Below are positions 178 to 29,180 of a stretch of 34,958 nt of DNA, piece by piece. Both the position numbers and the translations under genes were made by a program. The DNA is from a virus, in IMG/VR virus record IMGVR_UViG_3300032665_000113, positions 1-34,958 of that record; one strand, written 5' to 3'. The notes under the pieces were generated by a model, which worked only from the letters and a program-made list of their open reading frames with translations, had not been told where the DNA came from and did no database searches. The stretch's first letter is position 1. The number at the start of each line of letters is the position of its first letter.

Positions 178-879
178 ATGAGCACCGATATGGTCTTCTA
201 CGTTTACGAGCATTGGCGATTAGATCGCGATGAATGCTTTTACGTAGGTAAGGGCCATGGTAAGCGCGCTTATTCTATTAAAAACAGAAATCAGCATTGG
301 AACAATATTGTTTTAAAGCTGGAGCGCATCGGATCGGGATACGAAATTAGGTTAGTTGCTACAGGGCTTTCCGAACAAGACGCCTTTTCGCTTGAAAAGG
401 AAAGAATTTCTTTTTGGCGAGATCTTGTAGATTTAGCTAATATCTGCGATGGCGGAGAAGGCGTATCTGGATTAAAGCATTCTGAAGAAACTAAAAAACT
501 TTGGAGTGAAAAAAGAAAAGGGTGTCCTGTTTCTATTGAGGGGCGAATTAAACGTAGCAAAACTATGAAGGGTGTTCCAAAATCTAAGGAACATGCGGCC
601 AAAGCTGGAGCGGCCGGTGGTTTTGCCCGAAAAGGTATGAAACATAGCGAAGAACACAAAAAAGCAATTGGTTCTTCTTTGTTAAACAGTGAAAAATTTA
701 AATCAGCCAATAAAGCTAGAAGAAAAACAATTATATGTTTAAATTCAGGACAGATATTTAGTGGGTTAGATGAAGCAGCAATAGCAAATAATGTTTCAAG
801 ATATGCCGTCCATGATTGTTGCTCTGGAAGAACAAAGCATACAAAAGATGGCTTAGTCTTTAAATACGAGGACGCATAA
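178..879 (+). CDS. GIY-YIG homing endonuclease with NUMOD repeats
   Basis: A probable free-standing homing endonuclease of 233 aa that would nick or cut DNA to spread its own gene. The N-terminal GIY-YIG nuclease is seen as FYVYE (7-11) and FYVGKG (21-26), the YVG form common in phages, followed by Arg30 and the ERISFW segment (75-80) with the expected acidic residue. Residues about 96-170 carry repeated NUMOD3-like DNA-binding elements (GLKHSEETKK, then GVPKSKEHA, then GMKHSEEHKK). Residues about 183-230 (IICLNSGQIFSGLDEAA..) look like a NUMOD1 helix-turn-helix. It sits between structural genes. Its TAA overlaps the next ATG by one base (TAATG), and a GAGGA ribosome site for that gene lies inside its 3' end. 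The domain order is read by eye, but the motifs are distinctive. Confidence 0.88.
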   Translation: MSTDMVFYVYEHWRLDRDECFYVGKGHGKRAYSIKNRNQHWNNIVLKLERIGSGYEIRLVATGLSEQDAFSLEKERISFWRDLVDLANICDGGEGVSGLKHSEETKKLWSEKRKGCPVSIEGRIKRSKTMKGVPKSKEHAAKAGAAGGFARKGMKHSEEHKKAIGSSLLNSEKFKSANKARRKTIICLNSGQIFSGLDEAAIANNVSRYAVHDCCSGRTKHTKDGLVFKYEDA

Positions 880-2265: not shown

Positions 2266-3135
2266 ATGGCAACCGTCCCCTATACATTCGCAAATACCCC
2301 AGGCGGCGCGTCAATTCCACTTGCTGAGTTGGATGCCAACTTTGCGGCCATTGGCGTTCAAACAGGACCCACAGGGCCTACAGGACCAGTTGGGCCGCAA
2401 GGTGCTCCTTCTAATGTTACGGGGCCTACGGGATACACTGGGGCTATAGGGGCTACAGGCGCAACTGGACCAACTGGCCCAAATGGCACATCTAGTGTTT
2501 TATTTAATTATAATTCAAATACATCAAACACAAATGTAAGTATTTATCCTGGTGACGGTAATATTTGTTGGAATAATTCTGCCCAAATATCTTCGACGGC
2601 ATTAACCATCTCTAGCAGAGATACCAATGGTGCCGATATTGACTTATTTTTATCAAGTTTAGCTTCAGGTCAACAAATTGTAATCCAACAACAAACCAGC
2701 AGTTCAAATTATCAAACATTTCAAATTACATCTGCGCCAACAGAGGTAAACCCAGGAACATTAACATCGTATTGGGCATTTCCTGTTTCTCTGGTTAATA
2801 GTGGTGGAACAGGGACGTCTAATTTTGCTAATGCTTTACCAATATTTATCGCTATTACCACGTTGCAACCCGGCCCAACCGGGCCAACCGGGCCCGCCGG
2901 GGCTGCTGGGTTAAGCTCTTACATGGAGCAATTAAATATATCGACTACAAATATATTGCCGCCATTAACTAATTCATATGTGACGGGGTCGTTTATTATG
3001 TTTGTAAATGGCCAAGGGTTTGTTCCCACAGGAGCAACTCCCCCGTTTTCTGTATCTGGAACGGCGATTACTTGGCTTTCGACGGTATGGAGTGTTAATC
3101 CTGGCGACTTAGTCGTCGTTATCTATACATATTAG
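2266..3135 (+). CDS. Short collagen-like tail fibre protein
   Basis: A 289-aa fibre protein. Residues 1-32 ([20 protein letters not shown]) match the common N-terminal attachment segment of phage fibres. Residues about 34-75 are a collagen-like Gly-X-Y run ([20 protein letters not shown]) broken once by APSNVTG. Residues about 76-200 form a beta-rich globular module (CWNNSAQIS.., [13 protein letters not shown]) that is clearly related to one inside the giant fibre at 4801. A second short Gly-Pro-Thr run follows near residue 205, then an 80-residue C-terminal domain ending [13 protein letters not shown]. Collagen runs typically trimerise. The ribosome site is AGAGGAA. It probably works with the giant fibre in host attachment. 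Confidence 0.8.
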
Positions 3136-4800: not shown

Positions 4801-7800
4801 ATGTCTAACGTCCAGATCCCAAATCTTCCTGTTGCTATTTCTCTTAATGGCACAGAAGAACTTGAAGCAGTTCAGGCTGGGACGTCTGTTCGCGTTACTT
4901 CTTTGCAAATTGCTGGGTTGGCACCAGGCCCAACTGGCGCTCCTGGTCCATTTGGACCAACCGGACCTACTGGATATACGGGGTATACAGGGCCAGGAAT
5001 AACAGGTCCTCAAGGCCCAACAGGCCGAACTGGTCCAACAGGATATACAGGTTATACGGGCTATACCGGTGATACAGGTGCGCCATCTTTTGTAACTGGC
5101 CCGACTGGGTATACCGGTTATACTGGTCCCACAGGATATACTGGTTCACCTGGAACTAGCATAATTTATCAAGGCACAGTTGCAAACTCGACATTATTGC
5201 CACCTCAACCGCAGCCTGTTGGTTACGCTTATGTTGCGCAAGATACGGGTCATCTTTGGATATCTACTGGTAGTGTATGGTCTGATGCTGGCCCTGTTGT
5301 AACCAACTATACCGGTGCCACTGGCTATACAGGTTATACGGGATATACTGGACCCACTGGGTATACCGGCTATACAGGAAGCATTGGCGCAACTGGCTAT
5401 ACTGGTCCAACAGGTTATACAGGCCCAACTGGCTATACAGGTCCCACCGGATTTACTGGTTATACAGGATTTACCGGTCCAACTGGGTATACTGGAGATA
5501 CAGGTCCTACTGGTTACACAGGTTATACAGGCGCAGCTTCGACTGTAACAGGTCCAACTGGTTATACTGGATATACTGGATATACAGGATACACTGGTGA
5601 TACTGGGCCAACTGGATATACCGGATATACGGGATATACAGGATATACTGGTGATACCGGTCCGACTGGTTATACTGGGTATACGGGTGAAACTGGTCCA
5701 ACAGGTTATACTGGGTATACAGGAGAAACCGGTCCCGCTTCTGACGTTACGGGCCCAACAGGTTATACGGGTTACACTGGTTATACTGGCTACACAGGCG
5801 CTGCTTCTGATGTAACTGGTCCGACTGGTTACACAGGATATACTGGATACACCGGAGACTTCGGTCCCACTGGTTATACTGGTTATACTGGGGAAACCGG
5901 CCCAACGGGTTATACTGGATATACAGGTGAAACTGGCCCTACTGGTTACACAGGATATACGGGATACACTGGGGACACAGGCGCTCCGTCTGATGTCACA
6001 GGACCAACTGGTTATACTGGTTATACTGGCCCAACAGGCTACACAGGCGATACAGGCGCTCCTTCTGATGTTACAGGGCCAACTGGCTATACTGGCTATA
6101 CAGGTATGGCTGGTAGTGGGATTCAATATCTTGGCACTGTTAATGGATTCACAAACTTACCTGGATATCCTAGTTCATATCTAGGGGCTCAAGGCGATGC
6201 TTATGTAGATACTGTTACTCAAGATCTTTGGGTTTGGAACGGACTTACTTGGGTAAATAACGGTCCTTTTGCTTCAATTACAGGACCCACTGGCCAAACT
6301 GGCCCAACAGGGTATACGGGCGATATCGGACCTACTGGCTATACTGGATACACTGGAGATATCGGACCAACTGGTTATACCGGTTATACGGGTGACACAG
6401 GTCCAACAGGATATACTGGATATACAGGCGATATTGGTCCAACAGGTTATACTGGTTATACCGGGGCAACCGGCCCAACTGGATATACAGGATCAATTGG
6501 ACCAGCCGGTTCTTCTGCTACATCTTTTGGCTATATTGCTAATACGACTATCCAGTCTGGAGATCCTGGGACTGGTGACGTTCTATGGAACAACACAGCT
6601 CAGATTTCTGCTACATCTATTAATGTAAGCACAACTGATGGGGCGAGCGCGGATATTAGCGTTTATCTGTCTCTCTTGCAGCAAGGGCAGACGCTTGTCC
6701 TTCAAGATTCAGCCGTTGCAACATCTTGGCAAGCATTTACTGTTTCTGCTGCTACGACGGATAATACGACATATTGGACGATTCCGGTTACTTATGTAAG
6801 TAGCAGCGGGGCCGCAACAACTAACTTTGCCAATGCTACATCTTTAATTTTTGCTGTCGCTAGTGGCGCAATTGGCCCTCAAGGACCGCAGGGTGTAACT
6901 GGTGCAACCGGAGATACTGGCCCAACTGGCTATACTGGTTATACAGGTATTCAAGGCATTCAGGGTAATGTTGGCCCAACTGGTTATACGGGATATACGG
7001 GCCCGCAAGGAAATGCTGGCACTGTTGGAGATACCGGACCTACTGGATATACAGGTTATACTGGGTATACTGGAGATACAGGTCCTACTGGTTACACAGG
7101 TTATACAGGCGCAGCTTCTACTGTAACTGGCCCAACTGGCTATACAGGCTATACAGGTGCGCAAGGTGCAACTGGCTATACAGGCTACACAGGCGTAGGC
7201 GACACTGGTCCAACTGGTTACACTGGCCCACAAGGAGCCACTGGCTATACCGGGTATACTGGCGATCAAGGCGCTACTGGTTATACAGGCTACACTGGTC
7301 CAACTGGGTATACTGGCTATACGGGTTATACGGGCGATACAGGACCGCAAGGTGCTACAGGTTATACTGGTTATACGGGAGCTGCGTCTAACGTAACCGG
7401 CCCAACAGGCTACACGGGCTACACTGGCCCTCAAGGTGGCGGCATTGTTTATAAAGGCACTGTAACTGATTCCACTCAGTTAACAGTTGTTGACCCAACG
7501 CCTTCTGTTGGCGATGCTTATATCACGCTTGATAACCAGCATCTTTGGGTATGGAATGGCGTTAGCTGGGTAGATAACGGCGCAATTACAACAACTGGCC
7601 CAACTGGCGCTACTGGTTATACGGGGCCAACTGGTTATACGGGATATACAGGTTATACGGGCTACACAGGATACACTGGTGCTGCTTCTACTGTAACAGG
7701 CCCAACAGGCTACACTGGTTATACAGGGCCAATTGGTGCAACAGGTTATACCGGTTATACGGGCGATACAGGTTATACGGGCCCTCAAGGGGCCACTGGC

Positions 7801-10569
7801 TATACTGGTTACACGGGACCTCAAGGGGCGACTGGTTATACTGGTTACACAGGCCCGGTTGGCCCAACAGGATACACAGGCTATACTGGGTATACAGGTT
7901 ACACAGGCACAACTGGTTATACAGGTTATACGGGCTATACCGGTTACACAGGTATCCAAGGACCAACTGGACCAGGTGGCGCTGTCGCTTATTGGGGTTC
8001 GTTCTGGGATACAACAACCCAGACAATCGCTAGCACGACAACTGCTTATCCGATTACGTTCAATTCTTTTGATCCTAACAGTAACCAAGTTACTATTGTA
8101 TCAGGAAGCCAAATCACATTTGCGCAGGCTGGAACATATAATATTCAATTTTCGATACAGTTTGCCAATACTGATAGCGCTCAGATTTGGAATGCCAATA
8201 CATGGCTGCGCAAAAACGGCGTAAATATTCCAGATTCAAACAGCTACTGGACGATAACGAGCAAGCATGGCGGCACAAATGGTCAGATAGTTGGCGCTGC
8301 TAACTTCATTGTTGAGGTCACAGCTGGTCAATATATTGAACTTTACTGGCAGGCAGAAAGCACATCTGTCATCTTGGAAACTGTCCCTGCTGGAACGACC
8401 CCAACAACGCCAGTAAGCCCTAGCGTTATTTTGACAGCTACGCCAATCGTTTCAACGATTATTGGGCCAACTGGTTATACGGGCTATACGGGATACACTG
8501 GCTATACAGGCGCAGCATCTACTGTAACCGGTCCAACTGGTTATACAGGGTTCACCGGCCCTCAAGGCCCAACTGGATACACTGGTTATACAGGACCTCA
8601 AGGCGCTACTGGTTACACTGGTTACACAGGTCCTCAAGGAGCTACTGGTTATACGGGTTATACTGGGGCCATAGGCCCAACAGGATATACTGGGTATACA
8701 GGCCCACAGGGCCCAACTGGTTACACTGGGTATACGGGGCCAATTGGTGCGACAGGCTATACAGGCTACACAGGCTACACAGGCCCAACTGGCTATACGG
8801 GCTATACAGGCGATATTGGTCCGACTGGATACACAGGATATACTGGGCCCGGTATTACAGGTCCAACTGGCTATACTGGCTACACAGGTCCAGGCATTAC
8901 TGGACCGACTGGTTATACTGGCTACACTGGTTATACGGGACCAGGTGTAACGGGCCCAACTGGTTATACTGGTTATACTGGCTACACTGGGCCTCAAGGC
9001 GCTACTGGCTATACTGGATATACCGGCGCTACTGGCCCAACTGGCTACACTGGTTATACGGGACCAGGTGTAACTGGACCAACTGGTTATACTGGTTACA
9101 CCGGGTATACTGGTTACACAGGCCCGGGCGTAACGGGACCAACCGGATATACTGGCTATACTGGTTACACAGGATACACTGGTTACACAGGCCCACAGTT
9201 AATAACGATTAATTCAACGCCAATTGGAAGTGGCACGTCTGGTCGTATTCTTTATGACAATGCTGGCACTGTAGGCGAGCTTGTTATACCGCTTTCTATC
9301 TCAAATGGCGGAACAAATAACTCATCTGCTTATACTGCTGGATCTGTTATATTTTCTAATGGCACTTCATTAACCCAGGATAATGCAACTTTCTTTTGGG
9401 ATGACACGAATACGCAATTGTCAGTTGGAACTAATGTAACAGCTACTACGCCAGCGAATATTCAGCTGCAAATATTTAAAGACGCATTAATTAATGGCAT
9501 GACTGTCGGTCTTGGAACTGCGCAGCTAACGACAAATACCGCAGTTGGCTATCAAACACTTTTAGGTGTGACAACAGGAGCTTCCAACACAGCTGTTGGT
9601 TATCAGGTTCTTAAAGTAAATACTATTGGAACTCAGAATACGGGTGTTGGAAACCTTGTTCTATCTGCCAATACGACAGGAAACTACAACGCTGCTGTCG
9701 GTCAGGCTTGTCTGTTTAAGAATACGACCGGATCTCAAAATTCAGCATTAGGTCAAGGTTGTCTTTTCAATAATACCACAGGTGCCAGTAATTCTGCGAT
9801 TGGTGGGTCTGCGTTATTCAACAATTCTACAGGCTCTAACAACACAGCCCTTGGCCAAGCGGCTATGAACACTAATACCACGGGGGCCACAAATACAGCT
9901 GTTGGCACGTCGTCTCTCTATTCTAATACAATTGGAACAAACAACTGCGCCGTTGGTTATCAGGCTCTTTATTTTAACACTACCGGAACACCCAACACAG
10001 GCGTTGGAACGTTAGCCCTTAGAGCAAACCAGACTGGAACAAATAACGTCGCTGTTGGTGATAGTGCATTAACAGCATGCACTGGAAATCAAAATACATC
10101 TCTTGGTTCCAGCGCTGGTTCTTCGGTTACGAGTGGTTCAAATTTAACAATAATTGGCTATAATGCCCAAGCAACATCTGCGACTGCTACTAACGAAATC
10201 ACTCTTGGAAATTCGTCAGTTGCAACTCTACGTTGTCAAACTACAACTATTACATCTCTTTCTGACGCAAGGGATAAAACTGAAATAAGAGTTTTACTGG
10301 CTGGAATTAATTTTATAAAAACACTTAAGCCTGTGTCGTTTATATGGTCAATGCGCGATGGAGGTAAGGTTGGTATAGAAGATTCTGGTTTTATTGCTCA
10401 AGATTTACTTGAGTCCCAAAATATTACTGGAATTAAAATTCCTGGTCTTGTTTACGATGTAAATCCAGATAGACTCGAGGCTTCTTACGGCAAGCTTATA
10501 CCTGTATTAGTAAAGGCAGTTAAAGAGCTGATCGAAGAAATTGATGCCTTAAAAGGGAAAGTTGGCTGA
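4801..10569 (+). CDS. Giant collagen-like tail fibre with YadA-like repeats and S74 autoprocessing domain
   Basis: A 1922-aa mosaic fibre. Order: a fibre N-terminal domain (1-40, [19 protein letters not shown]); collagen-like Gly-Pro-Thr/Gly-Tyr-Thr runs totalling about half the protein; globular inserts at about 119-170, 437-494 and 880-930 (three copies of a GDAYV..LWVWNG..W module), 571-690 (related to the 2266 product) and 1061-1221 (C1q-like beta sandwich); a linker with [12 protein letters not shown] (about 1475); about twelve 17-residue NTAVG-type YadA-head repeats (1579-1790); and an S74 intramolecular chaperone (1821-1922). The S74 Ser/Lys dyad is visible as S1821-D-A-R-D-K1826, plus GFIAQDLL. 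In this family the chaperone trimerises the fibre and then cuts itself off at the Ser, so cleavage is expected at 1820/1821. It is presumably the long receptor-binding fibre. Confidence 0.9.
4927..9195 (+). repeat. Collagen-like Gly-X-Y coding repeats ([10 protein letters not shown])
   Basis: Degenerate 9-base units encoding Gly-Tyr-Thr and Gly-Pro-Thr, mostly of form GGN TAY ACN and GGN CCN ACN, in six runs separated by globular inserts. Third bases vary freely between copies while the peptide hardly changes, which indicates selection on the protein and not recent slippage alone. The composition also opens long spurious reading frames on the other strand and in other frames. Confidence 0.95.
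9535..10150 (+). repeat. Tandem 51-bp repeats encoding YadA-head-like 17-mers
   Basis: About twelve successive units with the consensus N-T-A-V-G-x-x-x-L-x-x-N-T-T-G-x-x, starting at Asn1579 of the giant fibre. The NxxVG signature is that of the left-handed beta-roll of YadA/Hia trimeric adhesin heads, here with 17-residue units (trimeric autotransporter heads usually use 14-15). The last units degenerate ([10 protein letters not shown]) before the S74 domain. Confidence 0.8.
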
Positions 10570-10570
10570 T

Positions 10571-10864
10571 ATGTCTATTAAAAAAACAATAAAAGCAGCG
10601 CGCCCGACCGTCAACTCTGTTTCCGGATATGTTTTAAGTTGGGATGTTGATATTACTTTAAGAGAAGGTAGCTTTGAATATAATTACAACTATTCAAAAG
10701 ATGTTGCTAATTTAAATAAAATACCATCTGATTTCTCTGAACCAGAAGTTTTAGGATATATGCCAGAAGGTCTGGAAGATGTATTTAAACACCACAAAGA
10801 ATTTTTGGGTGGAAATAATTCTTCTGAAACAATTATTGTCGATGATTTTACGTTTAGCAATTAA
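10571..10864 (+). CDS. Small hypothetical protein after the giant fibre
   Basis: About 97 aa, starting MSIKKTIKAARPTVNSVSGYVLSWDVD. The ATG at 10571 lies one base after the fibre's TGA, so the pair is probably coupled; a TTG at 10562 in the same frame would add three residues and is less likely. GGGAAAG just upstream can serve as ribosome site. The sequence is mixed alpha/beta with a Tyr/Asn-rich centre and an acidic C-terminal half (GLEDVFKHHKEF). I see no membrane segment or known motif. Position directly behind a tail fibre is where fibre-assembly chaperones often lie, but nothing in the sequence proves that role. Confidence 0.6.
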   Translation: MSIKKTIKAARPTVNSVSGYVLSWDVDITLREGSFEYNYNYSKDVANLNKIPSDFSEPEVLGYMPEGLEDVFKHHKEFLGGNNSSETIIVDDFTFSN

Positions 10865-10873
10865 TAGGAGTAA

Positions 10874-11545
10874 ATTGAAATTCGCACCGTTCTTCTTTCA
10901 GCGCCATCTTATGACGGCAAAGTAAACGTATGGCACTGCACGTCTTTAACTGAAACGGTAAAAATAGGTATATCAAAAAATATTAACATTGTGGCTGTTT
11001 ATATGTCTTACGATGCCTTAGTTCAAAGGGCTCGTAACGATATATTTAAACTAGCATATGATAATGATGTTGATGATCTGGTTTTTATCGATTGCGATCA
11101 AGATTGGCAACCGGAAGATTTTTTTAAGCTTCTTTCACATGATGTCCCAATTGTTGCCGCACCAGTCATAAAAAAATCTGACGACCCTCAATATAATGTA
11201 AAATTATTAGGAAATTATATTATAAATGAAAAAGGGTTGGTTGAGGTAGACGGAGTTGGCACTGGATTTATGAGAATAAGAAAAGATGCTATTAAAAAAA
11301 TGTGGTCTGCCTCAAGTGAATATCGTGAAAGACATAAGGAAGATTCGTCTCGTATGGTATTTGAAGTAAAAGTTATGAATGGGGAAATCTGGGCAGAAGA
11401 CATTGTTTTTTGTGATAAATGGATTAAATTGGGCGGTAAGGTATATATTGACCCATCCATTAATTGCGGCCATTCAGGTGAAAAAAGATGGGTAGGGAAT
11501 TTTTCGTCTTGGATCAAGACCTTAAACTTAAAAGGAGGGGTGTAA
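10874..11545 (+). CDS. GT-A-type glycosyltransferase-like protein, probable ATT start
   Basis: A probable nucleotide-sugar glycosyltransferase of 223 aa. The core is recognisable: YDALVQRARND (46-56), then LVFIDCDQDW with the DxD pair D73/D75 that would bind metal and sugar nucleotide, then PIVAAPVIKK. The first beta strand expected in this family (IRTVLLSAPSYDGKVNVWHCTSL) lies upstream of the first ordinary start, GTG 10991. Going back in frame, a TAA stands at 10871-10873, so the conserved N-terminus can only be reached from ATT 10874, three bases after AGGAG (10866-10870). A TTG at 10875 is out of frame and stops after 16 codons. Either ATT is used, or a small frame error has removed an ATG. 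It begins a cluster of transferases. Confidence 0.72.
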   Translation: MEIRTVLLSAPSYDGKVNVWHCTSLTETVKIGISKNINIVAVYMSYDALVQRARNDIFKLAYDNDVDDLVFIDCDQDWQPEDFFKLLSHDVPIVAAPVIKKSDDPQYNVKLLGNYIINEKGLVEVDGVGTGFMRIRKDAIKKMWSASSEYRERHKEDSSRMVFEVKVMNGEIWAEDIVFCDKWIKLGGKVYIDPSINCGHSGEKRWVGNFSSWIKTLNLKGGV

Positions 11546-11546
11546 A

Positions 11547-11735
11547 ATGGAAAACGAAATTATCAAGCTGGAGTTAACACTAGGTCAGGTTAACCACATT
11601 TTGGCTGTGTTAGGTGAGGCATCTTTTGTAAAAGCCGCAGACCCCGTAAACTGGATACGCGAGCAGGCGATTCCGCAGCATGCGGAAATAGCTAAGAAAT
11701 ATCCTGCTGAAGAAATAGCGCAAGCAGCAGAATAA
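11547..11735 (+). CDS. Small conserved phage protein of unknown function
   Basis: 62 aa, MENEIIKLELTLGQVNHILAVLGE at the start. The pattern of a short beta strand (KLELTLGQ), then a helix with ILAVLGE and a second amphipathic helix rich in Glu and Lys, recurs in many small phage proteins in late regions, none with a known job that I can name. It sits one base after the preceding stop with a strong AAAAGGAGG, and its product is acidic and soluble. Neighbours on both sides are sugar or methyl transferases, so it could be an accessory to that island; that is inference from position only. Confidence 0.65.
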   Translation: MENEIIKLELTLGQVNHILAVLGEASFVKAADPVNWIREQAIPQHAEIAKKYPAEEIAQAAE

Positions 11736-11769
11736 ATATAAATTCGCATAAGAGAGGAAGGGTCTCGTT

Positions 11770-12405
11770 ATGCATACATCGGCGTATAATCATGCGCAGC
11801 GTTTTTACGACTGCTATAACGGGGCTTTCCCTGATGGGTTTAAGGTAATTGAAATTGGTTCTCAAGACGTCAATGGCTCTTTGCGGCCTATTTTTGAAAG
11901 AGACTGCGACTATACGGGCGTAGACTTTGTGGCTGGTAAGGGCGTAGATCTTGTCTTAACCGACCCATACAAACTGCCTCTTCCAGACAAATGCGCAGAT
12001 ATCGTTGTTTCAAGCTCATGTTTTGAACATTCAGAAATGTTTTGGCTGACGTTCCTAGAGATCATGCGCATATTAAAGCCGCATGGTTTGTTTTATCTAA
12101 ATGTTCCATCCAACGGTATTTATCATACTTACCCCGTTGACTGCTGGCGGTTCTTTCCAGACAGCGGAAAGGCGCTCGTAACATGGGCCAAGCGCAATGG
12201 AATAAACGCAGCTCTTCTTGAATCCTATATTGGCTTCAAAGAAGGTGAAATGATTTGGAACGATTTTACGGCTATTTTTCTTAAAGACGAAAAGAATATA
12301 GAAAAACATAAAAAGCGCATTCTTAGCGTCCTGAAAGATTTCCATAACGGATATGTTTATGAAAATCCTGAGATTATGAACCGCGTTTATTGGCACGATA
12401 AATGA
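11770..12405 (+). CDS. Class I SAM-dependent methyltransferase
   Basis: 211 aa. Motif I reads KVIEIGSQDVNGS (25-35), the Gly-rich SAM-binding loop after the first strand. CDYTGVDFVAGKGVD is the acidic second strand, ADIVVSSSCFEHS (about 78-90) is motif IV of the type found in sugar or small-molecule methyltransferases, and GLFYLNVPSNG is the post-motif strand. There is no DNA-methylase NPPY/DPPY motif, so DNA methylation is unlikely. The gene shares ATGA with the next one, a glycosyltransferase-like gene, suggesting that the substrate is a glycan or a nucleotide sugar. A GAGGAAG ribosome site lies upstream of ATG 11770. Confidence 0.8.
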   Translation: MHTSAYNHAQRFYDCYNGAFPDGFKVIEIGSQDVNGSLRPIFERDCDYTGVDFVAGKGVDLVLTDPYKLPLPDKCADIVVSSSCFEHSEMFWLTFLEIMRILKPHGLFYLNVPSNGIYHTYPVDCWRFFPDSGKALVTWAKRNGINAALLESYIGFKEGEMIWNDFTAIFLKDEKNIEKHKKRILSVLKDFHNGYVYENPEIMNRVYWHDK

Positions 12406-13010
12406 CTCCGATACTCGTATGCACGGTTACGGGGCGTAGCCTTCCAGTTCTTGAAGCGAGCGTTAAAGCTTATTGCTCGGACGTTTCGTTGATCGCGCAT
12501 CACGTTGATCGGTCAACTTTTGGTCAATCGTATAACACCGCATTAGATGAGGCCTTTAAACAATACGATGAAGTTATTATCGCAAATGACGATGTTGTTT
12601 TGACGCCATCTACATATACGACTTTACTTGAAGATGTGGCCGCGTTAAAATCAGAGCATGGCGATAAGGTAGGTATAGTTGGCGCTAGGTCTGATTGCGT
12701 TCGAGAAGCGCAAAATATTAAAGAGAATCTGCCAGAAGAAGTTTTCTCAACGCTGTATGTATCCCCATTATTCGCTTGGATTCCAAAGATCGTTTTTGAT
12801 ATTACGCGCTTCCCGCATACAAACTGGTTTAGCGACGATATGATTTGTATGGATTTGAATTATGCTGGCTTTACCAATTGGGTGTCTCGGGCGTATGTCC
12901 ATCATGCCGGATCTCAGACGGTCGGCAATAATACATGGGAAATGTATTTACAGGCCATAGACTGGATAGAAAAGAATAGACCAGAACGTCTACATAGGTT
13001 TAAACGATGA
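12402..13010 (+). CDS. Glycosyltransferase family 2-like protein
   Basis: 202 aa with a GT-A-like layout: an N-terminal strand PILVCTVTGRSL, GQSYNTALDEAF where family 2 enzymes place the N-x-G/A substrate helix, then EVIIANDDVVLTPS (57-70) with Asp63-Asp64 as the metal/sugar-nucleotide site. A second block, TNWFSDDMICMDLNYAGF, supplies the acidic ED/DD acceptor-side residues. It is short for a full GT2 enzyme, so it may be minimal. It overlaps both neighbours by four bases (ATGA), which indicates translational coupling inside the transferase island. The product is cytoplasmic with no membrane segment. Confidence 0.75.
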   Translation: MTPILVCTVTGRSLPVLEASVKAYCSDVSLIAHHVDRSTFGQSYNTALDEAFKQYDEVIIANDDVVLTPSTYTTLLEDVAALKSEHGDKVGIVGARSDCVREAQNIKENLPEEVFSTLYVSPLFAWIPKIVFDITRFPHTNWFSDDMICMDLNYAGFTNWVSRAYVHHAGSQTVGNNTWEMYLQAIDWIEKNRPERLHRFKR

Positions 13011-13861
13011 AAATTATAGATGCTTTTACGTTTTATAATAATGTAGACATATTAAAAATGAGGCTCCAGCTTCATTTTGATCATGTGGACGAATTTTATA
13101 TTTGCGAATCTGACCATACATATTCCGGCAGACCAAAAGAATTTATTTTAGAGCAGCATTTGCATGAGATAAATCCCTGGATAGATAAGGTTCGATATAT
13201 AAAATATCATGCCGACCCAAGTGGATTAGATTTTTCTCAGGAATTTAAAGACGAAATTCTCAATCTTAGCAATCCCGGCTGGATTATGGAGTTCAGGCAA
13301 CGCAACCAACTAAAAGAACATATCCAAGATTTTGGCGATAATGATGTTATTGCAATTTGCGATATTGATGAATTTATTAGCCATGATGTTTTTAACTATA
13401 TTAGGCAAAATGGTCTCGGGCCAGATGAGTTACGTTTAAATCTCGTCATGCATCACTATTACATGAATTGCATACAACCTGGAAGGATATGGACACAACC
13501 ATTTATGTGCAAGGGGTCCAGATTTCGGCAGATAGATGACGTATCCTTTCACCGGCACTGCGTAGGTATGTATCATTGGTGGCCTAATGCTGGCTGGCAT
13601 TTTTCCAACCTTGGCGGCTATGAAGCCATAATGGATAAGATGCTTGCCACTTGTCATACAGAGTTTATTACCAATGGCGTAAATGACCCTGAATATATAA
13701 AAAATTGTATGAAATATGGGATCTTACCTAACATAAAAAAACCAACGCCATCTCTGGCTACATGTGAATTGGCTTTTGTGAAATTAGACGCATATCCCCC
13801 CTATTTGCGTAAAATTATGCTAGATAATCCAAAATATATTGTTACCGATTTGACGGTTTAA
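13007..13861 (+). CDS. GT17-like (N-acetylglucosaminyltransferase-type) glycosyltransferase
   Basis: 284 aa. The N-terminus IIDAFTFYNNVDILKMRL, then VDEFYICESDHTYSGRPK, the GWIMEFRQRN segment (91-100), and VIAICDIDEFI with D119/D121 match the run of motifs in family GT17, whose eukaryotic member MGAT3 adds the bisecting GlcNAc. Related sequences occur in bacteria and phages. NAGWHFSNLGG near residue 200 fits the GWHxS motif of the family. Donor and acceptor here are unknown. The gene overlaps the preceding one by four bases and is followed after 13 bases by another transferase, so it belongs to the same operon-like island. Confidence 0.8.
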   Translation: MKIIDAFTFYNNVDILKMRLQLHFDHVDEFYICESDHTYSGRPKEFILEQHLHEINPWIDKVRYIKYHADPSGLDFSQEFKDEILNLSNPGWIMEFRQRNQLKEHIQDFGDNDVIAICDIDEFISHDVFNYIRQNGLGPDELRLNLVMHHYYMNCIQPGRIWTQPFMCKGSRFRQIDDVSFHRHCVGMYHWWPNAGWHFSNLGGYEAIMDKMLATCHTEFITNGVNDPEYIKNCMKYGILPNIKKPTPSLATCELAFVKLDAYPPYLRKIMLDNPKYIVTDLTV

Positions 13862-13874
13862 GGAAGGGAAAACA

Positions 13875-14984
13875 ATGGAAACTATAGAATTAACGGCGAC
13901 GGAAATTATCCCGGAAAAGAAAAAGCTGAAGATATGCGTCTACGGTATCTCAAAAAACGAAGAAATGTTTATTCAGCGATGGGCTGATTCTGCTAGGCAG
14001 GCAGACCTTATTCTCCTTGCTGATACAGGCAGCGACGACGATACCGTCAAGCTGGCAAAGGAAAGCGGCGTCCAAGTCCATCATATCCACATCAAGCCGT
14101 GGCGCTTTGACCATGCCAGAAACGCCGCTCTTTGCCTGATCCCAGGCGACTTTGATGTCTGCGTCAGCCTAGACATTGACGAAATCTTGGAGCCCGGTTG
14201 GCGCGAAGAAATTGAGCGCCTATGGGAACCAGATACGACCCGTATGCGCTATATCTTTGACTGGGGGATGGGTAAGAAATTTTACCATGTCAAAATTCAT
14301 AGCCGCCATAGCCACTTCTGGAAACATGCCTGCCACGAAGTTCCTGTCACAGACATGCGGACTCCAGAAAAGTTCTGTTTTACCGAGAAGCAGATGGTGA
14401 CGCATTACCCAGATCATACCAAAAGCCGGGCGCAATATTTTGGCATCCTAAAGGTTGCTGTGGACGAAGACCCAAGCTGCCCCCGCAACGCTTTTTACTG
14501 GGCCCGTGAGCTTTCCTACTACAGCAAATGGGAAGAGGCGCTAGTAGCGCTTAAAAAATACCTTGATATGCCTAGCGCAACATGGAACTGCGAGCGATGC
14601 TACGCTTACATAACCATGGCAAAATGTTATGGAGCGCTTGGAAATCCTGTTGAAGAAGAAAAATCGCTCCTCAAGGCGGCTATGGAAGCAGGCGAAACGC
14701 GGGAACCGTGGGTGGCAATGGCGGACTTAATGTATCGACAAAACCGCTGGGCTGAATGCTTTGCTTACGCCATGCGGGCGGTAAATATTACCTACCGGGC
14801 CAACAATTATACGGAAGATCCAAATTGCTGGGGATGGCGTCCGCATGACTTTGCCGCTATCGCAGCTTTCCGGTTGGGATTGAAGGAAATAAGTATCCAA
14901 CAGGGGCAGATTGCGGTAGAATTGGAGCCGGAAGATCAACGCCTAAAAGATAATCTTTTGTGGTATATTGGTGAAAAGTCATGA
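13875..14984 (+). CDS. Glycosyltransferase family 2 with C-terminal TPR-like repeats
   Basis: 369 aa. The N-terminal 20-200 region is a GT2 catalytic domain: KICVYGISKNEEMFIQRW, LLADTGSDDDTV (48-58) and VCVSLDIDEIL with D100-I-D102. From about residue 205 helical pairs follow (RNAFYWARELSYYSKWEEALVAL and similar), consistent with TPR repeats, as in bacterial GT2-TPR enzymes where the repeats hold a protein or glycan acceptor. A TPR part makes a protein acceptor plausible. AAGGAAGGG precedes ATG 13875. It is the last gene of the transferase island, and the lysis cassette follows at once. Confidence 0.85.
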   Translation: METIELTATEIIPEKKKLKICVYGISKNEEMFIQRWADSARQADLILLADTGSDDDTVKLAKESGVQVHHIHIKPWRFDHARNAALCLIPGDFDVCVSLDIDEILEPGWREEIERLWEPDTTRMRYIFDWGMGKKFYHVKIHSRHSHFWKHACHEVPVTDMRTPEKFCFTEKQMVTHYPDHTKSRAQYFGILKVAVDEDPSCPRNAFYWARELSYYSKWEEALVALKKYLDMPSATWNCERCYAYITMAKCYGALGNPVEEEKSLLKAAMEAGETREPWVAMADLMYRQNRWAECFAYAMRAVNITYRANNYTEDPNCWGWRPHDFAAIAAFRLGLKEISIQQGQIAVELEPEDQRLKDNLLWYIGEKS

Positions 14985-17188: not shown

Positions 17189-19804
17189 ATGCCGCACGCC
17201 ACATTAAAGCTAACAGGCGGCGTCGACCAAAACCGCACACCCGCCTTAAACGAGGCGGCAATTTCTGCTACAAATCTTGTTCGGTTCGTTCCAGATAAGC
17301 AGGGTTTGACGCTTGTTCAAAAGCTTGGCGGCTGGACAAAATATCCTAATGCAGCAGACGCAAAATTTCCTAGTGTTATACGCGCACTTTGGGCATGGGA
17401 AGATCTTAACGCTAAATCTTATCTTGCTGTTGGGTGCGCAACAGATCCGTTAAGTTTAGAAAGTCTTTACGTTATACCGATTGGTTCTAGCGCTGCAACA
17501 ATACCTATTACACCTAAAACAAGCACATTAAATGTTCCTTTTGCGTCTACTTGGACATACTCAATAACGACTGCGACGACTACCGGCACAACTGCAAGCG
17601 TCAATTTTACAGGTTATCATTATTTTTCTGCAACTGAATCAATTTATATATCTGGCAATACAGTCTCAGGATATGATGGTTTTCAGCCGCAAGTTGCTTT
17701 AGATACCCTCGTTTCTCCAACATATGCCCAAGTTCAGTTCCAAATAACAGCAGGAACAGGCGCAGGCACAGGCGGAACAATTGCACCCCCTAATGGCTGC
17801 ATAACAAACGCTGGCGACCCTACTGTTACAATTAACGTATATGGATCTAATGTTAATAGTTATGATGCTGTAGACATAAGGACTCAAATTAGCGTCGGCG
17901 GTCTTATATTATTTGGAACATATCCTTGTATTTTTTATGATATTAATGGCTTCCAAATTATAGCAAGAGACGCTTTAGGCGCTCCCCTTTCAGCTACAAC
18001 TACAATCCCGGGCCCAATAGGCGGCGGCGTATTACCTACGTTTGATATGACAGTTAATCAGGCAACGATTACTGTCACTCTTCCAGATCATGGATATGCA
18101 GTAGGAGACACGTTCCCAGTTCTTATACCTATTAATTCTGGAACAGTAATTATATATGGTAATTATGTTATTCAAAACGTTTTATCATCAAGCCAGTTTA
18201 CAATAAGCAACAACACCAGCGCCACCGCTGTCACACCTCTGTCCTTTAGTGGTGACGGAACATACGCAACAGTTGAATACCCATTAAGTTATACCTTTAA
18301 TATTGGCGATCAGATAGATATTACAAATTCCGGATCAGGATATGATACAACAGCGGCAATAATTGTTAAAGTAACTACTGGCGTAAATTCAAGTTTTGCG
18401 ACATATGCCAATACAACAACAGGATCAATTGTTGTCCCAGCAAACTGCACGCTATTCAATACTTTAACATTATTAAACGGTGGAAAGGCGCAATTTGTTA
18501 TTTACAGAACCCCCGCTCCGCTTCCTACCGGCGTAGGATATGGAATTGGGGGATATGGCGATGGTGGTTATGGGACAGGCGTTATTCCGCCTTATGGCGG
18601 TGGTGGAACTCAGATAACCGTAACAGATTGGACGTTGGATAACTGGGGTGAGATATTAATTTCTTGCCCTGTTAATGGGGCAACTGGCGGACCTATTTAT
18701 CAGTGGGGGCCAAATATTGGCTCAACGATCGCATCTGTCATCCCACAAGCTCCGCCCATAAATGATGGCGTGTTTGTCGCAATGCCACAGCGTCAGCTTG
18801 TTGCATGGGGTAGCACTTTTACCGGTATTCAAGATCCGCTGCTTATTCTTTGGAGCGATGTTGCAGATTTTAATTCTTGGATTCCGACGCTTACAAATCA
18901 AGCTGGTTCTTACAGAATCCCGCGCGGCTCTCGTATTGTCTCTGCTGGTCAGGGCCCACAACAGGGTATTGTATGGACTGACATTGGCGTATGGGCCATG
19001 CAATATTCTGGTCCTCCTTACGTCTATCAATTTAACGAGATAGGAACAGGTTGCGGATTAATTTCTCGCAAAGCCGCATGTTCAATGAATGGTGTAATCT
19101 ATTGGATGGGGCAGTCTCAGTTCTTTCAGATGGGTGGAACATCAATTCAACCTATTACCTGTCCGGTTTGGGACGTTATATTCCAGGATCTAGATACAAC
19201 TCATTTAGATAAAATCCGCACAGCCCCAAACTCAAATTTTGGTGAGATTGCTTGGTATTATCCGTCTAAGAATAATGGCGGAGAAGTAAATAAGTATGTC
19301 AAATACAATATACTTCTAAATCAATGGGACTTTGGCACGTTGTCACGCACAGCGTGGATTAATCAGTCCGTTCTAGGACCTCCTGTTGGCGCAGGTATTA
19401 CAAGCGATAATAGCTATTACGTTTATCAGCATGAAACATCTCCCGATGCTGATGGCACTGTTATGGATTCATGGTTCCAGACTGGATACTTCATTATATC
19501 TGAAGCGGAATATAAGGTTTTTGTGGACCAGGTATGGCCAGATATGAAGTGGGGACTCTACGATGGTATTCAGAACGCGCATGTAAATATGACGTTCTAT
19601 TATACAGACTATCCTGCGCCATTTAATGATCCCAAAGTTAGACAAACACAACCTTATAATATTTCTTTAAGCACGGATTACGTTACACCTCGTTTTAGAG
19701 GTAGGTTAATGTCTATCCGTCTTGAGAGTGATCCAAATGAAATTGGAACTTTCTGGCGTCTAGGTGCGATGCGCTATCGCTGGGAACAGGATGGTAAGTT
19801 CTAA
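17189..19804 (+). CDS. P22 gp10-like tail hub / packaged-DNA stabilisation protein
   Basis: 871 aa, nearly twice P22 gp10 (472 aa). The N-terminal part (GGVDQNRTPALNEAAISATNLVRF, then LVQKLGGWTKYPN and ALWAWEDLNAKSYLAVG) is typical of podoviral tail-hub proteins. The second half has propeller-like repeats: PQRQLVAWGS, RIPRGSRIVSAGQGPQQGIVWTDIGVWAMQY, and GCGLISRKAACSMNGVIYWMGQSQFFQMGG. The end, FWRLGAMRYRWEQDGKF, resembles the gp10 C-terminus. Residues about 110-440 are Thr/Gly/Asn-rich inserted beta domains that explain the extra length. It would form the tail hub below the adaptor and bear fibres. Its stop overlaps the next start (TAATG). Confidence 0.75.
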   Translation: MPHATLKLTGGVDQNRTPALNEAAISATNLVRFVPDKQGLTLVQKLGGWTKYPNAADAKFPSVIRALWAWEDLNAKSYLAVGCATDPLSLESLYVIPIGSSAATIPITPKTSTLNVPFASTWTYSITTATTTGTTASVNFTGYHYFSATESIYISGNTVSGYDGFQPQVALDTLVSPTYAQVQFQITAGTGAGTGGTIAPPNGCITNAGDPTVTINVYGSNVNSYDAVDIRTQISVGGLILFGTYPCIFYDINGFQIIARDALGAPLSATTTIPGPIGGGVLPTFDMTVNQATITVTLPDHGYAVGDTFPVLIPINSGTVIIYGNYVIQNVLSSSQFTISNNTSATAVTPLSFSGDGTYATVEYPLSYTFNIGDQIDITNSGSGYDTTAAIIVKVTTGVNSSFATYANTTTGSIVVPANCTLFNTLTLLNGGKAQFVIYRTPAPLPTGVGYGIGGYGDGGYGTGVIPPYGGGGTQITVTDWTLDNWGEILISCPVNGATGGPIYQWGPNIGSTIASVIPQAPPINDGVFVAMPQRQLVAWGSTFTGIQDPLLILWSDVADFNSWIPTLTNQAGSYRIPRGSRIVSAGQGPQQGIVWTDIGVWAMQYSGPPYVYQFNEIGTGCGLISRKAACSMNGVIYWMGQSQFFQMGGTSIQPITCPVWDVIFQDLDTTHLDKIRTAPNSNFGEIAWYYPSKNNGGEVNKYVKYNILLNQWDFGTLSRTAWINQSVLGPPVGAGITSDNSYYVYQHETSPDADGTVMDSWFQTGYFIISEAEYKVFVDQVWPDMKWGLYDGIQNAHVNMTFYYTDYPAPFNDPKVRQTQPYNISLSTDYVTPRFRGRLMSIRLESDPNEIGTFWRLGAMRYRWEQDGKF

Positions 19805-28620: not shown

Positions 28621-29100
28621 TTACATATTTTTGCGAAGCATTTTTTCCAAATTACCGCGTGCAGGGTAGTAGCATATCGAGTAATGCTCGGCGCAATAAG
28701 AACCACGCGTCTGCATCTCACCACAGTATTTAACAGGCGTTTCGTCACCTGAAATAATAAATCTACATGAGTTCAGTTTAAGATCCAGTAATTCTATGCC
28801 ACCTGAACGCGTTGGCAGTGAAGGAACATTTTCTATTTGTAAATCTTTAGGTATTATATTTATTGCTTTTGGGTTATGTCTTTTGGCGTAATCTTCTTCT
28901 CTAACTTTTCTTGCTTCAACAACTCTTTTCTTATGCTGTTCTTTTTCATCACGCGCAAAAACGTGACCCTTGCGTCTTAGTCTATTAACCATGCCAATAA
29001 CGGCATTGCGCGTCATATTAAGCTTCTCGCCAATTTGGCTGCCGCTTAACCCCTCTTCCCAATATTTAATAAGTTGGTCTCTTTGCTTTGAACTGATCAT
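28621..29100 (-). CDS. gcrA: GcrA-family cell-cycle regulator
   Basis: About 159 aa from ATG 29100, where AAGGA lies seven bases upstream and the product opens as GcrA proteins do; a farther ATG at 29166 would add 22 unrelated residues. The N-terminal DNA-binding part (2-45) contains YWEEGLSGSQIGEKLN and MTRNAVIGMVNRL, the near-invariant GcrA helix-turn-helix. The C-terminal part has LNSCRFIISGD, KYCGE and SYCAEHYS, matching the Cys/His-containing sigma-factor-binding domain. In Caulobacter GcrA joins RNA polymerase holoenzyme and activates promoters with methylated GANTC. A phage copy may steer host or phage transcription. It is transcribed away from the metallophosphoesterase gene. Confidence 0.88.
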   Translation of the reverse strand: MISSKQRDQLIKYWEEGLSGSQIGEKLNMTRNAVIGMVNRLRRKGHVFARDEKEQHKKRVVEARKVREEDYAKRHNPKAINIIPKDLQIENVPSLPTRSGGIELLDLKLNSCRFIISGDETPVKYCGEMQTRGSYCAEHYSICYYPARGNLEKMLRKNM

Positions 29101-29149
29101 GTCGATTTCCTTGCTATATTTCGATATTAAATGTAAAATACATAACCCA

Positions 29150-29180
29150 TTGACATAAAACGACAATAATTAACGTCTAT
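29150..29180 (+). promoter_or_regulatory. Possible sigma-70-type promoter for the metallophosphoesterase gene
   Basis: An exact TTGACA (29150-29155) lies in the 113-bp divergent region, but the best -10 (GTCTAT, 29175-29180) is 19 bases away and poor. The region holds no GANTC site, so GcrA control through methylation is not indicated. Low confidence. Confidence 0.28.

What the first reader, a model, noticed from the sequence alone, without database searches (positions are those of the whole stretch)
10874..14984. Transferase island beside Gly-X-Thr collagen-like fibres: possible self-glycosylation of the virion
Seen: three GT-A-type glycosyltransferases, a GT17-like enzyme and a SAM methyltransferase sit in one chain of mostly coupled genes, directly after fibres with hundreds of Thr residues in Gly-Pro-Thr and Gly-Tyr-Thr triplets. 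One enzyme carries TPR-like repeats, a layout that suits a protein acceptor. Known: Gly-Pro-Thr collagens such as Bacillus BclA are O-glycosylated on Thr, and the sugar is methylated in anthrose. Inference: the phage may decorate its own fibres, for stability, host binding or escape from receptor mimics.
Basis: inference. Interest (0 to 1): 0.72.

Follow-up and report, generated by a model that had tools for sequence, protein, structure and literature searches.

The report
Phage enzymes that sugar-coat its fibre
A phage carries, right after its giant collagen-like fibre gene, a set of sugar-attaching enzymes whose key member is found beside threonine-rich collagen genes in many other phages and in bacteria, so the phage probably decorates its own fibre with sugars.

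Summary
Window 10874-14984 encodes four glycosyltransferase-like proteins and a SAM methyltransferase on one strand, directly after a 1922-aa collagen fibre in which 257 of 309 Gly-X-Y triplets (in runs) end in Thr. The last enzyme (13875-14984) is a GT-A domain plus TPR superhelix. Its nearest solved folds are the peptide glycosyltransferases SunS and ThuS. In 90%-identity clusters with at least 3 kb on both sides, this GT-TPR has a Gly-X-Thr collagen within 10 kb in 27/30 phage and 18/25 bacterial cases, against 0/20 control regions around other GT2 genes. In relatives not chosen for the enzyme, 7/8 records with it carry collagen and 2/25 without it do. Nearby bacterial collagens are Thr-rich at Y (medians 0.76 vs 0.115; imperfect control). 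In 34 of 91 loci the GT-TPR is fused to a methyltransferase-type domain or to the neighbouring small GT, which suggests one pathway. Precedent: C. difficile SgtA (GT-A+TPR, beside bclA3) O-GlcNAcylates Thr in Gly-Pro-Thr-region peptides. Best reading: phage-encoded O-glycosylation of its own fibre. Acceptor, sugar, linkage and benefit are untested. New variant of a known kind.

The parts
2266..3135 (+). small collagen-like fibre, 289 aa, Thr in 9 of 18 Y positions
   Evidence: (collagen-like minor tail PHROGs)
4801..10569 (+). giant Gly-X-Thr collagen fibre, 1922 aa; N-terminal about 40-aa block found in relatives; C-terminal S74 chaperone; proposed acceptor
10562..10864 (+). 100-aa ORF of unknown function between fibre and island
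   Evidence: no families
10874..11545 (+). GT-like protein (PHROG 1574); start codon unusual (ATT)
11547..11735 (+). 62-aa ORF with relatives near the island in L006 (87%) and L014 (39%)
11770..12405 (+). class I SAM methyltransferase (PF08241), proposed sugar methyltransferase
   Evidence: methyltransferase-type domains fused to GT-TPR in relatives
12402..13010 (+). small GT-A-fold glycosyltransferase; fused to the N-terminal side of GT-TPR in 9 loci (e.g. L030, L032, L038)
13007..13861 (+). GT17-family glycosyltransferase (PF04724)
13875..14984 (+). GT-A + TPR glycosyltransferase, proposed enzyme that attaches the first sugar to fibre Thr

Best explanation
The island is a phage-encoded O-glycosylation pathway for the phage's own collagen fibre. 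The GT-TPR at 13875-14984 probably attaches the first sugar (by analogy with SgtA, a GlcNAc) to Thr in the Y position of Gly-X-Thr triplets, in the cytoplasm before the fibre trimerises, holding the repetitive chain in its TPR groove. The small GT (12402), the GT17-like enzyme and perhaps the PHROG 1574 enzyme extend the glycan, and the methyltransferase caps or modifies it. Shown here: gene content, predicted folds, fusions in relatives, and linkage of the GT-TPR to Thr-collagen across phages and bacteria. Inferred: the acceptor, donor, order of steps, and benefit (triple-helix stability without hydroxyproline, and a coat on the fibre that alters binding or recognition).
For: (1) 27/30 phage and 18/25 bacterial GT-TPR clusters with at least 3 kb context have a Gly-X-Thr collagen within 10 kb. 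Controls around other GT2 genes of genomes that carry it: 0/20 regions of 10.8-19.5 kb and 0/29 regions of 1.7-3.5 kb (a 30th, L298, turned out to be the GT-TPR itself). (2) Relatives anchored on a different tail-region gene: with GT-TPR 7/8 records have Collagen, without it 2/25 (Fisher 6e-5). (3) Y-position Thr: median 0.76 in 27 bacterial collagens near a GT-TPR, 0.115 in 28 clostridial collagens without one within 1.5 kb (p=2e-7). (4) 391 genomes of one class: Collagen Pfam match in 23/24 with GT-TPR and 144/367 without (p=2e-8). (5) Model pLDDT 88.8; best folds SunS and ThuS, Z 19.9-21.1. (6) N-terminal fusions: 25 to a methyltransferase-type domain (4 scanned with Pfam), 9 to the GT12402 type, of 91 loci. 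(7) SgtA precedent (abstract and passages).
Against: No biochemical or proteomic data. Some phage records have a GT-TPR and no Collagen match (L073, L237, L228, L196, L082, L110); all may be fragments, and some carry Gly-rich fibre-like proteins instead, so the acceptor may be wider. With shorter upstream context the rate drops: 22/24 at 5 kb or more, 32/39 at 3 kb, 37/56 at 2 kb. Seven of 25 bacterial clusters lack a collagen within reach. Many phage Gly-X-Thr collagens lack a GT-TPR: 14 of 67 stretches had one (11 strong), and 10 of 40 further records had some match, 6 of them strong. L134 and L137 have collagen without the enzyme. Distant jumbo-phage GT-TPRs sit without collagen nearby (0/5). 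Within the phage lineage only 2-3 supported independent changes exist, too few for significance.
Confidence: 0.76

Rival explanations
1. The enzymes modify the host surface polysaccharide (O-antigen or capsule) to block superinfection and travel with the fibre genes as a host-recognition cassette.
For: Published readings of phage GTs near fibres take this view or name it as an option (passages of PMC7029224 and PMC10202952). PHROG 13126 is named beta-1,4-glycosyltransferase; a PaBG relative is annotated as a LOS glucosyltransferase.
Against: No strongly hydrophobic stretch in the five enzymes. Linkage is to Thr-collagen, including in bacteria. Fold closest to peptide GTs.
Confidence: 0.1
2. 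The enzymes act on the virion, but mainly on another protein (capsid, Gly-rich fibres, other tail parts), and the collagen link is indirect.
For: Exceptions with Gly-rich fibre-like proteins and no collagen in view; four of five jumbo-phage relatives sit near head genes; capsid and tail-tube glycosylation is reported for mycobacteriophages (as cited in PMC12619734).
Against: Close neighbourhood with collagen in phages and bacteria, and Y-position Thr enrichment.
Confidence: 0.09
3. The enzymes glycosylate phage DNA against host nucleases.
For: Proposed for phage GTs in general (passages of PMC10202952 and PMC12619734).
Against: Position next to fibre and tail genes, collagen linkage in bacteria, TPR module, fold closest to peptide GTs. 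A search for base-modification genes was not made.
Confidence: 0.03

Closest known systems
Clostridioides difficile SgtA / BclA3 (PMC7157674, abstract and passages)
   Same: GT-A domain plus C-terminal TPRs, 358 aa against 369; gene next to a Gly-Pro-Thr collagen; SgtA adds beta-O-GlcNAc to Thr of collagen-region peptides in vitro
   Different: Spore protein, not a virus. Sequence kinship to SgtA was not tested (no SgtA sequence compared). The phage enzyme has partner or fused methyltransferase-type and GT domains.
SunS / ThuS peptide S-glycosyltransferases (7msn, 7msp, 7msk)
   Same: GT-A + TPR layout, best fold match, peptide acceptor
   Different: 15-18% identity; far below the SunS model cut-off (21 of 350 bits); their acceptor is a short bacteriocin cysteine (recalled)
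Virion glycosylation of mycobacteriophages (Freeman 2023; paper not held; seen only as cited in PMC12619734 and PMC13313380)
   Same: Phage-encoded enzymes decorate virion proteins
   Different: Capsid and tail tube C-termini, not collagen fibres
Mimivirus collagen hydroxylation and glycosylation (seen as cited in PMC8968730)
   Same: A virus modifies its own collagen with sugar
   Different: Hydroxylysine chemistry (recalled), virus of amoebae; enzymes were not compared here

Membership tests
SgtA-type collagen Thr O-GlcNAc transferase | GT-A N-terminal domain with C-terminal TPRs | tested here: met
SgtA-type collagen Thr O-GlcNAc transferase | gene beside a Gly-X-Thr collagen gene | tested here: met
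   window: same gene cluster, 3.3 kb after the fibre; relatives
SgtA-type collagen Thr O-GlcNAc transferase | sequence homology to SgtA | not tested
SgtA-type collagen Thr O-GlcNAc transferase | UDP-GlcNAc donor and Thr acceptor activity | not testable with these tools
   needs an enzyme assay
SunS family peptide S-glycosyltransferase (TIGR04195) | curated model cut-off (350 bits) | tested here: not met
   21 bits
SunS family peptide S-glycosyltransferase (TIGR04195) | shared GT-A+TPR fold | tested here: met
   Z 19.9-21.1, 275-321 residues aligned, rmsd 5.5-8.2
PHROG 13126 beta-1,4-glycosyltransferase | profile match over most of its length | tested here: met
   E 2.8e-98, profile 2-357 of 394; the name is an annotation, not a tested function
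Glycosyltransferase family 17 (PF04724) | score above the gathering cut-off | tested here: met
   56.4 vs 26 bits for 13007-13861
Collagen triple helix repeat (PF01391), fibre 4801-10569 | score above the gathering cut-off | tested here: met
   356.7 vs 27.2 bits, 12 stretches
Membrane-bound serotype-converting glycosyltransferase systems | transmembrane glycosyltransferase or flippase in the cassette | tested here: not met
   maximum 19-residue hydropathy 0.88-1.46 in the five enzymes; a simple hydropathy scan only

The most novel reading that the evidence does not exclude
The GT-TPR is the core of a dedicated, mobile collagen-glycosylation module shared by phages and bacteria. Phages evolve it into single polypeptides (methyltransferase + GT + GT-TPR) that build a methylated glycan on each Gly-X-Thr triplet, a bacterial-virus substitute for the hydroxyproline chemistry that stabilises animal collagen.
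Probability: 0.45. Interest if true: 0.75.

Novelty: new variant of a known kind. Interest (0 to 1): 0.62.

Why it matters
It gives a widespread set of phage glycosyltransferases a concrete, testable target. Three papers whose passages I saw discuss phage GTs mainly as DNA or host cell-wall modifiers (PMC10202952, PMC7029224, PMC12619734; the last also names the virion). If true, sugar-coated collagen fibres occur in many phages. That would bear on how phages bind hosts, how fibres stay stable without hydroxyproline, and how fibre proteins should be produced for study. A toolkit of Thr-collagen glycosyltransferases would also follow. In four full-text searches of the held library (listings of 2 of 2, 15 of 25, 15 of 26 and 12 of 17 papers) no listed title or abstract start reports phage-encoded glycosylation of phage collagen fibres.

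Tried and rejected
Calling the island an LPS-modifying cassette: no strongly hydrophobic segments, and the link persists in bacteria. Treating PHROG 13126's name as a function: set aside. Counting the distant GT-TPRs as part of the same group: rejected, because under 250 bits the collagen link is 0/5 in phages and 1/7 in bacteria. Yet the seven clostridial genomes with weak matches do carry collagen matches elsewhere, so a role there is not excluded. Counts mended: one search included loci chosen for collagen (L462, L472), so one search replaces it; the table is biased toward 'yes' and is not used; the Thr comparison counted one gene twice and left two GT-TPR-bearing loci (L517, L518) in the background, and the short control held one GT-TPR (L298); one search gives the mended numbers, with the same conclusion. 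A phylogenetically controlled test inside the phage lineage was too small (2-3 supported pairs); in it the 12 rows beyond the 33 complete contigs were labelled by hand. The clostridial background for the Thr comparison was drawn from the best Pfam Collagen loci, a profile that may favour non-Thr repeats. The class sample was centred on a genome chosen for having the enzyme. A fold search of the viral library was not run. Families that do not appear in the VIA-align or Foldseek lists are not excluded.
Full report
What is there. The window is a 34,958-base virus record. Most genes run on the + strand from 178 to about 28.5 kb. The tail protein at 17189 resembles proteins annotated as phage stabilization proteins, and two proteins end in S74 chaperones. 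The fibre at 4801-10569 is 1922 aa with 411 Thr. In runs of at least four triplets, 257 of 309 have Thr at Y, with Tyr (152) and Pro (79) commonest at X. Pfam Collagen matches in 12 stretches. After a 100-aa ORF comes the island: a PHROG 1574 GT-like protein (10874-11545), a 62-aa ORF, a SAM methyltransferase (11770), a small GT (12402), a GT17-like enzyme (13007) and a GT-A+TPR enzyme (13875-14984). It is followed by an 87-aa ORF matching a 'lipoprotein' PHROG and by an M15-type endolysin. Genes 12402 and 13007, and the gene after the GT-TPR, overlap their predecessor by four bases.

What the key enzyme looks like. The AlphaFold model of the GT-TPR has mean pLDDT 88.8. Foldseek ranks SunS and ThuS first (E 1e-15 to 3e-13), and VIA-align gives Z 21.1 and 19.9 for SunS and 19.9 for ThuS. 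A sequence profile also reaches SunS, a chain that names ThuS (7msk), and GmaR (flagellin-related, recalled), besides TPR proteins including O-GlcNAc transferase. Alignment of 14 phage relatives keeps the DxD (D100, D102), W76-R77-F78-D79 and H154-E155 invariant. The small GT 12402 had no family, but its model (pLDDT 89.4) matches GT-A enzymes, first N-acetylglucosaminyltransferase I (E 8e-9); the human collagen galactosyltransferase is among the first 50 rows. That last match is only a shared fold.

Where else it occurs. In many phage relatives the GT-TPR lies between the fibre and the small gene before the endolysin. Of 24 GT-anchored loci with at least 5 kb upstream, 22 have at least 8 Gly-X-Thr triplets (exceptions L228 and L196); with at least 3 kb it is 32 of 39 and with 2 kb 37 of 56. 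After clustering at 90% identity and requiring 3 kb on both sides, 27 of 30 phage clusters and 18 of 25 bacterial clusters have a Gly-X-Thr collagen within 10 kb. Distant family members under 250 bits give 0 of 5 (phage) and 1 of 7 (bacterial). Within 2.5 kb, 16 of the 31 bacterial loci have one. Controls around other GT2 genes in genomes that carry the enzyme: 0 of 29 short regions and 0 of 20 long regions, 350 kb in all. DSL-LC01 and an unverified human faecal phage clone show the same pair at about 40% identity.

The unselected test. Loci were fetched with a different tail-region gene (879-1565), so they were not chosen for either partner (80 loci). Thirty-three are complete across the region. 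GT-TPR lies inside the interval in 6, each with 30-67 Gly-X-Thr triplets; the other 27 have at most 2. Whole-record searches then moved two (L110, L129) to GT-positive and found a collagen elsewhere in L134 and L137, which lack the enzyme. Final table: GT-positive 7 of 8 with collagen, GT-negative 2 of 25; Fisher 6e-5. These contigs are related, and supported independent pairs are only 2-3, too few for significance. Breadth across groups therefore carries more weight: the tree holds phage, clostridial, alphaproteobacterial and other rows, with the window beside a Verrucomicrobiota MAG contig that could itself be viral.

Specificity for threonine. Twenty-seven bacterial collagens near a GT-TPR have Thr at Y in 24-100% of triplets (median 0.76). 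Twenty-eight clostridial collagens without a GT-TPR within 1.5 kb range from 0 to 85% (median 0.115; Mann-Whitney 2e-7, mending); that background was picked by Pfam score. In 391 genomes of one class, a Collagen match occurs in 23 of 24 genomes with a GT-TPR and 144 of 367 without. The reverse is looser: 14 of 67 viral Gly-Pro-Thr collagen stretches had a GT-TPR (11 strong), and 10 of 40 further records had a match elsewhere, 6 of them strong. Other enzymes, or none, may serve those.

One pathway. Thirty-seven of 91 loci have an N-terminal extension of at least 80 aa on the GT-TPR. Twenty-five form one cluster; the four representatives scanned with Pfam (L021, L029, L186, L222) gave methyltransferase matches there, two of them with an additional Gly_transf_sug domain. 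Nine contain a GT12402-type domain, one of them (L229) behind a further 174 residues. Three are neither. L017 has a stand-alone Methyltransf_24/TylF-type protein beside the GT-TPR, L006 has a similar one in the same blast cluster, and L006 also has an NDP-sugar dehydratase/epimerase. Fusion of activities that are separate genes in the window is the best evidence that they work on one product. The fused methyltransferase domains are not shown to be orthologous to the window's methyltransferase. The PHROG 1574 protein is the weakest member: its relative in L047 is in a contig with no visible collagen.

Mechanism and precedent. C. difficile SgtA is a 358-aa GT-A + TPR protein encoded next to bclA3; it uses UDP-GlcNAc to glycosylate Thr in peptides from the Gly-Pro-Thr region (PMC7157674, abstract and passages). 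The phage enzyme shares layout and gene neighbourhood; kinship by sequence to SgtA was not tested. I therefore infer that the GT-TPR starts the glycan on fibre Thr, that the small GT and the GT17 enzyme extend it, and that the methyltransferase caps it. A review states that bacterial collagens mostly lack hydroxyproline, often use Thr at Y, and that BclA glycosylation is believed to aid hydration networks (PMC8968730, passages). That makes stability the most likely benefit; altered binding or recognition is possible.

Verdict. It works like SgtA/BclA3, moved into a phage and elaborated by partner and fused enzymes. It is a new variant of a known kind rather than a new category. In the four library searches made no listed paper reported it for phage collagen fibres.

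Noticed in passing
window 10874-11545: The first island gene has no ATG, GTG or TTG start at its conserved N-terminus, only ATT after an AGGAG motif; the bases are the same in two other contigs. Either a rare start codon or a frameshift.
   Followed up: partly
window 28621-29166, - strand: Encodes a GcrA-type cell cycle regulator (PF07750, 3e-20), which by recall points to an alphaproteobacterial host.
   Followed up: partly
L228 5899-6636; L195 1789-3546; L032 737-2446 and 4421-6154; L180 515-1396; L237 2233-2982: Some relatives whose stretch shows little or no Gly-X-Thr collagen have a very Gly-rich (24-33%) fibre-like protein upstream of the GT-TPR; perhaps an alternative acceptor.
   Followed up: partly
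L352 6457-8028 (phage DSL-LC01): A gene annotated tryptophan halogenase lies between the collagen genes and the GT-TPR.
   Followed up: no
L353, L355-L358 (jumbo phages PaBG, SNUABM_30, HRDY3, Lu11, NCTB): A diverged GT-TPR sits near a DNA ligase gene in all five and close to the head maturation protease in four, without collagen within 8 kb; its acceptor is unknown.
   Followed up: partly
window 178-879: Looks by eye like a GIY-YIG/NUMOD-type endonuclease; Pfam gave no hit at 0.001.
   Followed up: partly
L134 7485-9456 and L137 5104-7075: Two closely similar relatives with a 657-aa collagen (27 of 67 triplets Gly-X-Thr) but no GT-TPR in the record.
   Followed up: partly
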